Source of the DNA: Leptolyngbya sp. FACHB-321
Lineage (GTDB): Bacteria > Cyanobacteriota > Cyanobacteriia > Leptolyngbyales > Leptolyngbyaceae
Reading direction: 5' to 3'
Assembly: GCF_014695975.1 (NCBI RefSeq)
Contig: NZ_JACJPI010000042.1
Span: forward strand, 124,001 to 188,000
Length of the DNA: 64,000 nt
The notes beneath the pieces are model-generated. The model was not told where the DNA came from, searched no databases, and saw nothing but the letters and a program-made list of their open reading frames with translations. Below are positions 22,828-55,366 of the stretch, piece by piece; positions within the stretch are counted from its first letter, which is position 1, and each line of letters starts with the position of its first letter. A program made the translations under genes and the position numbers.

Positions 22828-22998
22828 TTAACCAAGCCCTAACCAAGCCAACACGCCTTGTCCAGTAACGTATTCAATAATCAGAGTAAGTGCAAAGCCA
22901 ATCATGGCAGCGCGACCGTTAAGGCGTTCGGCATACCCGCTAAAACCAAACTTCGGTTCTTCTAACTTGGGGGTGACAGTGGGTTGAGGTGTTGTCAT
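22828..22998 (-). CDS. High-light-inducible protein (Hlip/SCP), 56 aa; absent from the supplied ORF track
   Basis: Translated by hand: [56 protein letters not shown]; ExxNGRxAMxGF chlorophyll-binding motif. Confidence 0.93.
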
Positions 22999-23094: not shown

Positions 23095-23112
23095 GTTACA
23101 AATATTTACACT
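23095..23112 (+). promoter_or_regulatory. Candidate HLR1 (RpaB-type) direct repeat upstream of the Hlip gene
   Basis: GTTACAAA-TA-TTTACACT versus (G/T)TTACA(T/A)(T/A)-N2-(G/T)TTACA(T/A)(T/A): 15 of 16 positions. Confidence 0.6.
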
Positions 23113-52235: not shown

Positions 52236-52377
52236 AGCAAACGTACTGCGATTAAAAACAAACTCTAGCCTGCCAATGGCTACAAAACAACACTTTTACT
52301 TTCATCTTAAGCTCGATCGCTTTAGTGTAGCGATCGCTAAAAAACTCTAGATATAAGGATTAAGAAAAAGCGCCAAC

Positions 52378-52410
52378 AAAAAACGGGCTAACCAGGGAAG
52401 GGTTAACCCG
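52378..52410 (-). terminator. Terminator after ycf35
   Basis: Minus strand CGGGTTAACC-cttccct-GGTTAGCCCG followed by TTTTTT. Confidence 0.85.
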
Positions 52411-52434
52411 CTAGTTTGGGAACGCGAAAAAGAA

Positions 52435-52788
52435 CTACTTTTGTAGTACCAGTTTGACGTTTGCGTTTTGCAGACCAGGACGCTTGACTTCAGAAAGAGT
52501 CTTGTTCACAGCATACTTTTGGTTGATCGAATTGATCAGCTCAGTCTGGTTATGCTTCTTAGCAACACCCCAGAGGTCAGCAATCAGGTCAAACGAACCG
52601 TCGGTGTTGCGAGACCAGCCCAGATCATATTCGCCTTCTAGAATGGCAACGATGTCTGAACGAACCCGCTGACCATTGTAGCCACGAACATCAGCATCTG
52701 TTTTCACAGAAATACCTAGATCACGGAGAGAAGCCTTCAGGATTTCGGCATCAGTAATCTTGGTACGCAGAGTGCTAAAATGAGACAT
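52435..52788 (-). CDS. ycf35: DUF1257 protein, Ycf35-like
   Basis: MSHFSTLRTKITDAEILKASLRDLG..; strong AGGAGGAA Shine-Dalgarno. Confidence 0.92.
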   Translation of the reverse strand: MSHFSTLRTKITDAEILKASLRDLGISVKTDADVRGYNGQRVRSDIVAILEGEYDLGWSRNTDGSFDLIADLWGVAKKHNQTELINSINQKYAVNKTLSEVKRPGLQNANVKLVLQK

Positions 52789-52923
52789 TTGAGTTTCCTC
52801 CTGTGGGGATTTGAGAACAACGTTTGATGGTCAGGAAGCTAACAGCGATCGCTCTTAGCTGTTTGTGGGTCAACTGCTAGCAAAGTGCTAGCCTTTCCTC
52901 CTGTTGGGAGCAGGAGAAAGCTT

Positions 52924-54429
52924 TTAGGACTCAAGTCGCTGATACTCAGCCACTGAGAACGCCGCAGGTCGCGCTCGCTGCCTTGCCCAATCTCTGAGGG
53001 CAGTTACCTGTTCGGTCATTGTTTTAGAAAGCGGCAACGTTGACTTGATAGCAGCAATAATGTCCAGTTGAGTAAATTCTCGATCCTGGGCAAAAGCCTC
53101 ATACATTGCTGCTACCAGTGCTTGTTCAATTTCAGCACCTGAGAAACCGTCGCACACATTCGCTAACTGGTCCAAATCAAACCGTGCAATCTCGCGGCGA
53201 CGCTTAGAGAGATGAATCTGAAAAATCTCTTTCCGCTCTTCACTATTCGGCAAGTCAACAAAAAAGATTTCGTCAAATCTTCCTTTCCGCAAAAACTCTC
53301 CGGGCAAACGCTCCACACGGTTAGCAGTTGCCATCACAAACACAGGAGACGTTTTTTCTTGCATCCAGGTGAGGAAAGAGCCAAAAATCCGGCTAGATGT
53401 ACCACCATCAGAATCCGCTGAACCGGATGTGCCAGCGAACGCTTTATCCATCTCATCAATGAACAAGATAGCGGGGGAAATCGACTCTGCTGTCTTCAAA
53501 GCACCACGTAGATTTGCTTCAGACCGACCCACCATAGAGCCATCATAGACACGTCCCATGTCAAGGCGTAGCAAGGGCAAACCCCAAAGGCGTGAGGTTG
53601 TTTTGGCTATCAGTGATTTGCCACAACCTGGTACACCTAGAATTAGCATCCCTTTTGGCTGAGGCAAGCCATACTCTCTAGCACGCTCTGTAAACGCATT
53701 GGAACGCTGCTTTAACCAACGCTTGAGTTCTTCTAAGCCGCCGACAGAATCGATCGTTTCGTCTTCTTCAACGTACTCCAGAATACCGTTGCGTCGAATT
53801 AGCTGCTTCTTCTCAGAAAGAACAACGTCAACTTCTTCCTCCGTCAAGCGACCAGCAGTAACCTGAGCTTTACGATAAACCTTTTCTGCTTCATCGCGCG
53901 TCAGCCCTAAGGCTGCTTTTAACAACTTCTCACGCGCTTCAGTCGTAATACGTCTAGTGCGAACTTGCTCAAGCTGCTGCGAAAGAACGTGGTTAAGCTC
54001 TCCCATATTCGGCATTGGAAAATCCAAAACCGCTACTTCTTTTTCTAGCTCAATGGGAATCTCTTGTACCGGCGACATCAAAATAATCGTTTTTTGAGTG
54101 CCTTTGAAGCTAGAGATTGCATCTCTCAACCAACGTATAACAGGAGCCGAATAAAATGGATGAAGATCCTTGAAAACAAAAATACCTGGCTCTTTCTGCC
54201 GAGTTACCCACTCAATAGCAGCCTCAGGCGAAACTGTATTGTGCTGAGTCACACTACGAGGCTGACCGTACTCAACAATGCCGTGCGTTACAGTCCAGAC
54301 AAAGACCCGACGCTGAGGTTTATTCTGGGAAACCGCCACAATGGTCTGTTCAGCCCTTTCTTCCTCTGATGTCACCATATAGATGAGAGGATACTGAGCC
54401 TGTATCAGAATACTGAGTTCTTCCTGCAT
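52924..54429 (-). CDS. ycf46: AAA ATPase, Ycf46-like; start probably 54429
   Basis: LIQAQYPLIYMVTSEEERAEQ...GVPGCGKSLIAKTTSRLWGLPLLRLDMGRVYDGSMVGRSE. Confidence 0.94.
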   Translation of the reverse strand: MQEELSILIQAQYPLIYMVTSEEERAEQTIVAVSQNKPQRRVFVWTVTHGIVEYGQPRSVTQHNTVSPEAAIEWVTRQKEPGIFVFKDLHPFYSAPVIRWLRDAISSFKGTQKTIILMSPVQEIPIELEKEVAVLDFPMPNMGELNHVLSQQLEQVRTRRITTEAREKLLKAALGLTRDEAEKVYRKAQVTAGRLTEEEVDVVLSEKKQLIRRNGILEYVEEDETIDSVGGLEELKRWLKQRSNAFTERAREYGLPQPKGMLILGVPGCGKSLIAKTTSRLWGLPLLRLDMGRVYDGSMVGRSEANLRGALKTAESISPAILFIDEMDKAFAGTSGSADSDGGTSSRIFGSFLTWMQEKTSPVFVMATANRVERLPGEFLRKGRFDEIFFVDLPNSEERKEIFQIHLSKRRREIARFDLDQLANVCDGFSGAEIEQALVAAMYEAFAQDREFTQLDIIAAIKSTLPLSKTMTEQVTALRDWARQRARPAAFSVAEYQRLES

Positions 54430-54551
54430 AGCATCGACCCATGAGAGACAGTGCAACCGCCTAGATTAAAGAAACCTTTACGTCTGACCTTAAAACCTAC
54501 TTAGAGGCAATATTCAGAACGCAAGCTTTCTACTAAAACACCCGCTTGGAA

Positions 54552-54908
54552 CTAGCAGGGAACCAAACTTCCTTCACCTTGAGCTTCAGCACTAATAGAG
54601 CTAGCACCCTTGACCCGTACAGATGGAAGCTTTTCCTCAACTAACGCACCAGATTGAGCGCGTAGAGAAACCAATTCACCATCTTTCAAAATGGAAGGAG
54701 AGGAACATTCGTTACACGTATAGATCTGATAAGCCTTTCCGTGCGCTGCACCTTCATAACCGTCAACCAGCTCACTATGAGACAAGTAGAACGCGATGGC
54801 GCGTTGAGCAATATCCGTCATTGTCTCAGAATCAAGTGCTGCCCGAATTTTGATTTGACGGTGCAGCTCTGGCGGGAGATATAACGTAACTTTCTGCTTG
54901 TCTTGCAT
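54552..54908 (-). CDS. Ribbon-helix-helix-like protein with a short Cys pair; start probably 54908
   Basis: MQDKQKVTLYLPPELHRQIKIRAALDSETMTDIAQRAIAFYLSH (RHH) then YTCNECSSPSILKDGELVSLR. Confidence 0.82.
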   Translation of the reverse strand: MQDKQKVTLYLPPELHRQIKIRAALDSETMTDIAQRAIAFYLSHSELVDGYEGAAHGKAYQIYTCNECSSPSILKDGELVSLRAQSGALVEEKLPSVRVKGASSISAEAQGEGSLVPC

Positions 54909-54924
54909 AGAACTCTCAGTTGTG

Positions 54925-54934
54925 TACCCGGGTA
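54925..54934. promoter_or_regulatory. Perfect 10 bp palindrome near the predicted transcription start of the RHH-ycf46-ycf35 set
   Basis: TACCCGGGTA. Confidence 0.45.
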
Positions 54935-54942
54935 TGTAATGA

Positions 54943-54971
54943 AGAATATCGACTGAACAGCTTGCTGTCAA
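54943..54971 (-). promoter_or_regulatory. Candidate sigma70-type promoter for RHH-ycf46-ycf35
   Basis: Minus strand TTGACA (54966-54971), N17, TATTCT (54943-54948). Confidence 0.6.
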
Positions 54972-54978
54972 GACACCA

Positions 54979-54994
54979 TGCCGTCATGACGGCA
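54979..54994. promoter_or_regulatory. Perfect 16 bp palindrome upstream of the -35 box
   Basis: TGCCGTCATGACGGCA. Confidence 0.6.
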
Positions 54995-54999
54995 ACATC

Positions 55000-55017
55000 G
55001 TTACATCTAGTTACAAT
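55000..55017 (+). promoter_or_regulatory. Candidate HLR1 (RpaB-type) direct repeat upstream of RHH-ycf46-ycf35
   Basis: GTTACATC-TA-GTTACAAT, 15 of 16 positions versus the HLR1 consensus. Confidence 0.6.
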
Positions 55018-55141
55018 TGTCTGGTGTTGACATAGCGTATTACTAGCAGATGTAAGGACAGTAAAACCTAATGTAGGCAGTGCTTTTAGTGCTTTAGTTT
55101 TTGAAGACGGACTTTTAAGGCTAAGCAACTAACACTTGGAT

Positions 55142-55366
55142 CTAGAGCCTGTACCAATTAAGCCAGATAGCGGTGGCCGCCAGAGAAACTGCCTCTAGAA
55201 AACTCTTTGAGTGCTTGTCATAGGAGATCCGCCTAGTAACGACATAGCACCGTATTGACAAGCAGTCGTTTGTTCTTGACGTTGGCTCCTATATCACCTT
55301 CGCGTCTAGGCAGTAAGTCTTTGGTTCGTTTCCATTGCTTATCTCGTAGAGCGTATCGTCGTGGTG
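55142..55366 (-). mobile_element. IS5-family-like transposase remnant, internally deleted
   Basis: Minus strand RRYALRDKQWKRTKDLLPRREGDIGANVKNKRLLVNTVLCRY* joined almost directly to YDKHSKSFLEAVSLAATAIWLNWYRL*; catalytic middle absent. Confidence 0.72.

What the first reader, a model, noticed from the sequence alone, without database searches (positions are those of the whole stretch)
54908..55017. Second HLR1-like repeat, same orientation and distance, upstream of RHH-ycf46-ycf35
GTTACATC-TA-GTTACAAT (55000-55017) lies 91 nt upstream of the RHH protein ATG. The Hlip site lies 96 nt from its ATG, on the same relative strand, with the same TA spacer. This suggests the poorly understood Ycf46/Ycf35 module belongs to the same light-acclimation regulon as the Hlip. 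The repeats are seen; the shared regulon is inference.
Basis: partly seen in the sequence, partly recalled or inferred. Interest (0 to 1): 0.78.

Follow-up and report, generated by a model that had tools for sequence, protein, structure and literature searches.

The report
Conserved light-stress promoter before ycf46
A light-response DNA switch (HLR1) sits before a poorly understood cyanobacterial stress operon, has been kept at one exact promoter position across nearly all cyanobacteria that carry the operon, and is joined by a second array of short repeats that looks like the landing site of the operon's own regulator.

Summary
The repeat is real: GTTACATC-TA-GTTACAAT at 55000-55017 (+), one mismatch to HLR1, 91 nt from the ATG. 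Two such sites in 64 kb exceeds chance (0.07 expected), but conservation is decisive. Before orthologues of this RHH gene (slr0373 family, NF052617), an HLR1 with ≤3 mismatches occurs in 31 of 36 cyanobacterial families (0.7 expected), on the same strand, and exactly 28 nt before the -35 in 105 of 109 promoters. The operon matches Synechocystis slr0373-slr0374-slr0376, a known light/stress operon. I propose that the RHH protein binds the array and autoregulates while RpaB gives light input. Binding and polarity are untested. The third gene is a divergent DUF1257 paralogue, probably not Ycf35 proper.

The parts
55000..55017 (-). HLR1 element (GTTACATC-TA-GTTACAAT reads on the + strand; the gene it serves is on the - strand)
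   Evidence: one mismatch to consensus; same strand and 28 nt before the -35 in 105 of 109 orthologous promoters
54965..54994 (-). tandem array of 8-bp boxes TGCCGTCA-TGACGGCA-TGGTGTCT-TGACAG(C), last box overlapping the -35; proposed operator of the RHH protein
   Evidence: lag-8 self-match 0.469 versus 0.241, z 29.6; only match in this genome; in 58 genomes no match away from this promoter
54966..54971 (-). predicted -35 hexamer TTGACA
   Evidence: near-invariant
54943..54948 (-). predicted -10 hexamer TATTCT, 17-nt spacer
   Evidence: best -10-like hexamer falls at 17/18 nt spacing in 106 of 109
54926..54933 (-). ACCCGGGT palindrome just downstream of the predicted transcription start (about 54935-54937)
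   Evidence: exact in 98 of 125 orthologous promoters, never elsewhere in the fetched upstream DNA; only exact CATACCCGGGTA in the genome
54552..54908 (-). slr0373-family protein: N-terminal ribbon-helix-helix, CPEC-type motif, C-terminal VPC
   Evidence: NF052617, 138.8 bits, cut-off 100; PF20605 Antitox_RHH in 27 of 31 relatives, best 2e-5; conserved cysteines
52924..54429 (-). Ycf46-like AAA+ ATPase (slr0374 type)
   Evidence: directly downstream of the RHH gene in 78 of 80 loci
52876..52924 (-). two conserved tandem RNA hairpins between ycf46 and the third gene
   Evidence: 17 pairs, 8 with compensatory changes; no Rfam family
52435..52788 (-). DUF1257-family protein (paralogue; probably the slr0376 position)
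23095..23112 (-). HLR1 of the Hlip gene (22828-22998, -), just after its -10 box

Best explanation
Shown from sequence: the RHH-ycf46-DUF1257 operon has one ancient, strongly conserved promoter. In order it holds an HLR1, a tandem array of 8-bp boxes overlapping the -35, a 17/18-nt spaced -10, and an ACCCGGGT palindrome at the start of the transcript. Inferred: RpaB binds the HLR1 from the activator side and couples the operon to photosynthetic redox state; the RHH protein encoded by the first gene binds the 8-bp array (and perhaps the palindrome), blocks the -35 and represses its own operon; stress or redox change, possibly sensed through its conserved cysteines, lifts this. The RHH gate, rather than release of RpaB, would then explain induction under high light, blue light and other stresses. 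My rough confidences: functional RpaB site 0.8; activator-type action 0.55; RHH autoregulation through the array 0.6.
For: HLR1 profile and placement: 86 of 124 upstream regions have at most 2 mismatches in the 86-100 nt zone on one strand, against 9 matches at all other positions; shuffles give 1.5 sequences. 31 of 36 families have at most 3 mismatches versus 0.7 expected; columns match KTTACAWWNNKTTACAWW throughout. Rigid 28-nt spacing to the -35 while the -35/-10 spacer sequence is unconserved. Array: 8-bp periodicity; 25 of the 42 genomes with the gene match the pattern at up to 3 mismatches, all at this promoter, with none in 16 genomes lacking the gene and none in the reversed control. 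RHH domain: and weak profile hits to solved RHH-type proteins (2kel, 9kkd). Precedent: Anabaena TrcR, an RHH repressor, autoregulates through a motif conserved before its own gene (PMC10272220). Position rule for RpaB: PMC13421787, PMC6331805. Stress induction of slr0373/0374/0376: PMC7496141.
Against: The TSS is predicted, not measured. With it, HLR1 spans about -63 to -80, a little farther out than the published activator window (-45 to -66), so the rule may not apply. An RpaB activator should lose activity in high light, yet the Synechocystis operon is reported to respond to high light and stress by rising; the RHH gate is an added assumption to explain that. PMC6331805 notes that HLR1 role is not always set by location. 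No binding data for RpaB or the RHH protein; another OmpR-type regulator could use the site. Structure prediction was poor (pLDDT 64, pTM 0.26) and fold search gave nothing usable. The lag-8 test pools related sequences, so its z is inflated.
Confidence: 0.6

Rival explanations
1. RpaB represses the operon in low light and releases it in high light, exactly as for the Hlip.
For: Same motif, same strand; operon and hli genes both rise in blue light in Synechocystis, and the operon responds to high light (PMC7496141).
Against: HLR1 lies 28 nt upstream of the -35 in 105 of 109 promoters, not over the start site as in hli genes.
Confidence: 0.25
2. The conserved element is the site of another OmpR-type response regulator, not RpaB.
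For: The genome has several close RpaB relatives (230, 229, 214 bits); some families keep only one good half-site (GTAATATT-N2-GTTACAAT type).
Against: The column profile follows the HLR1 consensus including its degenerate positions, and two hli genes of this genome carry the same motif upstream.
Confidence: 0.15
3. The 8-bp array is bound by something other than the RHH protein, or is a sigma-factor or DNA-bending feature of the promoter.
For: It overlaps the -35; no binding data exist.
Against: It is confined to the one promoter of the RHH gene and absent where the gene is absent; 8-bp tandem boxes recall the MetJ type of RHH operator (general knowledge, not tested).
Confidence: 0.35
4. The single site in this window is a chance match.
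For: Genome-wide excess over control is under threefold at up to 1 mismatch.
Against: Position-fixed conservation over 36 families.
Confidence: 0.01

Closest known systems
HLR1 / RpaB (NblS-RpaB) regulon of Synechocystis PCC 6803 and Synechococcus PCC 7942
   Same: 18-bp direct-repeat motif, RpaB in the genome, light/stress operon downstream; upstream-of-core placement as described for photosystem I genes
   Different: reads on the strand opposite to the gene, about 63-80 nt before the predicted start, separated from the -35 by an 8-bp repeat array; no paper I could read names this operon as an RpaB target (Riediger 2019 was not available)
slr0373-slr0374-slr0376 stress-responsive operon (Synechocystis)
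   Same: first gene is an NF052617 (slr0373 family) member, second is Ycf46, same order
   Different: the window's third gene is a DUF1257 protein; identity with slr0376 was not tested
TrcR of Anabaena PCC 7120 (RHH autorepressor)
   Same: RHH protein, conserved motif before its own gene overlapping the core promoter, 8-bp consensus
   Different: different motif (ATACTACACTTGTATTAC), overlaps the -10 rather than the -35, regulates translation genes; relation between the two proteins was not tested
MetJ met-box arrays (E. coli)
   Same: tandem 8-bp near-palindromic boxes overlapping a promoter, RHH protein
   Different: box sequence differs and no AdoMet link; the resemblance is from general knowledge, a lead and not a test

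Membership tests
HLR1 element | KTTACAWW-N2-KTTACAWW direct repeat | tested here: met
   one mismatch here; 0 mismatches in 18 orthologous promoters at the same place; column profile agrees
HLR1 element | RpaB encoded in the genome | tested here: met
   NF045944, 398.4 bits, cut-off 330
HLR1 element | bound by RpaB | not testable with these tools
   needs EMSA or ChIP
RpaB-repressed (hli-type) promoter | HLR1 within about -38 to +23 of the start site | tested here: not met
   HLR1 ends 28 nt before the -35; start site predicted only
RpaB-activated promoter | HLR1 about -66 to -45 | tested here: inconclusive
   upstream side, but about -63 to -80 from the predicted start
slr0373 family (NF052617) | score above curated cut-off | tested here: met
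   138.8 versus 100 bits
ribbon-helix-helix proteins | sequence match to an RHH profile | tested here: inconclusive
   PF20605 in 27 of 31 relatives, best 2e-5, but the window protein itself is below cut-off (16.6 versus 27.2 bits)
ribbon-helix-helix proteins | RHH fold | tested here: inconclusive
   helices 13-24 and 30-43 follow the expected strand region, but the monomer model is poor
Ycf35 | orthology within DUF1257 | tested here: inconclusive
   four DUF1257 proteins in the genome; this one scores 78 bits, the best 151

The most novel reading that the evidence does not exclude
Nearly all cyanobacteria outside the small picocyanobacteria run this stress operon from one composite promoter in which a global light regulator (RpaB, from upstream) and a dedicated, self-encoded RHH repressor with possible redox-sensing cysteines (on a MetJ-like tandem 8-bp array over the -35) act together, giving an operon that can be induced by many stresses through a single local gate.
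Probability: 0.45. Interest if true: 0.72.

Novelty: new member of a known kind. Interest (0 to 1): 0.6.

Why it matters
The slr0373-slr0374-slr0376 operon is among the most strongly blue-light- and stress-induced loci in Synechocystis, yet its function is unknown (PMC7496141). A base-pair-rigid promoter map conserved over the class names two candidate regulators, gives opposite predictions for RpaB at hli and at this operon, and makes both directly testable with reporter fusions in laboratory strains.

Tried and rejected
Scanning at up to 2-3 mismatches was dropped: it is mostly noise (147 versus 127 control genome-wide; 10 versus 13.5 expected in the window). A combined -35/palindrome pattern used a wrong gap and found nothing. 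Riediger 2019 (RpaB regulon) is not in the library, so whether slr0373 is already listed there is unknown. Piechura 2017 main text does not mention ycf46. Fold search of the RHH model gave only meaningless hits. No Rfam family in 52300-55300. HLR1 before the DUF1257 gene: none (best mismatch mostly 4-6 in 190 nt). Ycf46-like proteins of genomes lacking the RHH gene are only 40-44% identical and carry no HLR1 better than 3 mismatches upstream, so they are probably paralogues and no use as a test of what happens to the HLR1 when the RHH gene alone is lost.

Full report
OBSERVATION. The motif and its coordinates are correct. The site and the Hlip site are the only matches with at most one mismatch in the window, against 0.07 expected. 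Genome-wide the excess is modest, 22 against 8 in the reversed control, so a motif match alone would not be convincing.

WHAT THE GENES ARE. The first gene belongs to the curated slr0373 family (NF052617). Its N-terminus looks like a ribbon-helix-helix (PF20605 in 27 of 31 relatives), followed by a conserved CPEC-type motif and a C-terminal VPC. The second gene is a Ycf46-like AAA+ ATPase. The third is a DUF1257 protein, but the genome has four of these and another scores much better, so 'ycf35' is uncertain. Among 80 related loci, ycf46 follows the RHH gene in 78 and the DUF1257 gene was detected after it in 75; the exceptions are loci that end too early to show it. By gene content this corresponds to slr0373-slr0374-slr0376, a known stress operon that responds to high light, blue light, iron, nitrogen or sulfur lack, salt and oxidative stress (PMC7496141).

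CONSERVATION OF THE SITE. I collected upstream DNA of 125 orthologues from 36 families. An HLR1 match with at most 2 mismatches lies in the 86-100 nt zone on the same strand in 86 of 124, against 9 matches at all other positions and strands. Taking one genome per family, 31 of 36 have at most 3 mismatches, against 0.7 in shuffles. The column frequencies reproduce the HLR1 consensus, including K and W positions. Sequence upstream of the site and between -35 and -10 is not conserved, so this is selection rather than recent common descent.

PROMOTER ARCHITECTURE. HLR1 ends exactly 28 nt before TTGACA in 105 of 109 promoters; the best -10-like hexamer follows at 17 or 18 nt in 106; an ACCCGGGT palindrome follows, usually 8-10 nt after the -10, exact in 98 of 125 and never elsewhere in the fetched upstream DNA. 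The window has TTGACA at 54966-54971 and TATTCT at 54943-54948.

THE TANDEM ARRAY. Between HLR1 and the -35, and overlapping the -35, lie near-palindromic 8-bp boxes, in the window TGCCGTCA-TGACGGCA-TGGTGTCT-TGACAGC. Self-match at lag 8 is 0.469 against 0.241 (z 29.6; inflated by relatedness). A 30-bp pattern for it matches 25 of 42 genomes with the gene and 0 of 16 without it, with no match away from this promoter in any genome and none for the reversed control. Such an array over a core promoter, before a gene for an RHH protein, suggests autoregulation; TrcR of Anabaena is a proven case of an RHH protein doing this through a conserved motif before its own gene (PMC10272220). This remains inference.

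COMPARISON WITH THE HLIP. Among 30 relatives of the Hlip gene, 24 have an HLR1 with at most 3 mismatches, same strand, at variable distance from the ATG; in 18 of these it begins 3-10 nt after the -10 box. That is the repressor position. In the RHH operon it is upstream of the -35. By the published rule (PMC13421787) the two placements predict opposite RpaB effects. The near-equal distance to the ATG in this window is a coincidence of different leader lengths.

MECHANISM. The most likely reading is RpaB input from upstream plus an RHH self-gate at the -35. The tension with high-light induction in Synechocystis is real and unresolved: either the RHH gate dominates under stress, or RpaB at this distance acts as a repressor, or another regulator uses the site.

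NOVELTY. HLR1 and the operon are both known; their link is not stated in any paper I could search, but the main RpaB-regulon paper was not available. I therefore file it as a new member of the HLR1 class. The array and the palindrome appear undescribed as far as I could search.

Noticed in passing
52876-52924 (-): Two tandem hairpins directly after the ycf46 stop, 17 pairs with 8 showing compensatory changes among 31 sequences; probably the element reported as slr0374-x-slr0376 in PMC2662882. Could be a processing or attenuation signal before the third gene.
   Followed up: partly
52789-52924 (-): The anti-Shine-Dalgarno-like TTTCTCCTG of hairpin 1 could also pair with the conserved GGAGGAAA before the DUF1257 gene, so alternative pairing (translational control) is possible.
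   Followed up: no
54552-54908 (-): The slr0373-family protein keeps a CxxC motif (CPEC in most) and a C-terminal VPC: possible zinc or disulfide redox switch.
   Followed up: no
L010/L011 (G000:C54:269396-269433): Three overlapping HLR1-like repeats about 100 nt before a second hli gene (C54:269533-269655).
   Followed up: partly
L016, L013, L017: Other HLR1 sites with at most 1 mismatch lie shortly before a ferrochelatase-like gene, a phycobiliprotein-like gene and an OmpR-type response regulator (the first two identified by eye from translations).
   Followed up: no
genomes G035, G059, G106 and others: Genomes lacking the RHH gene have only a 40-44% identical Ycf46-like protein, so two Ycf46 paralogue groups seem to exist and the slr0374 type seems absent together with the RHH gene.
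   Followed up: partly
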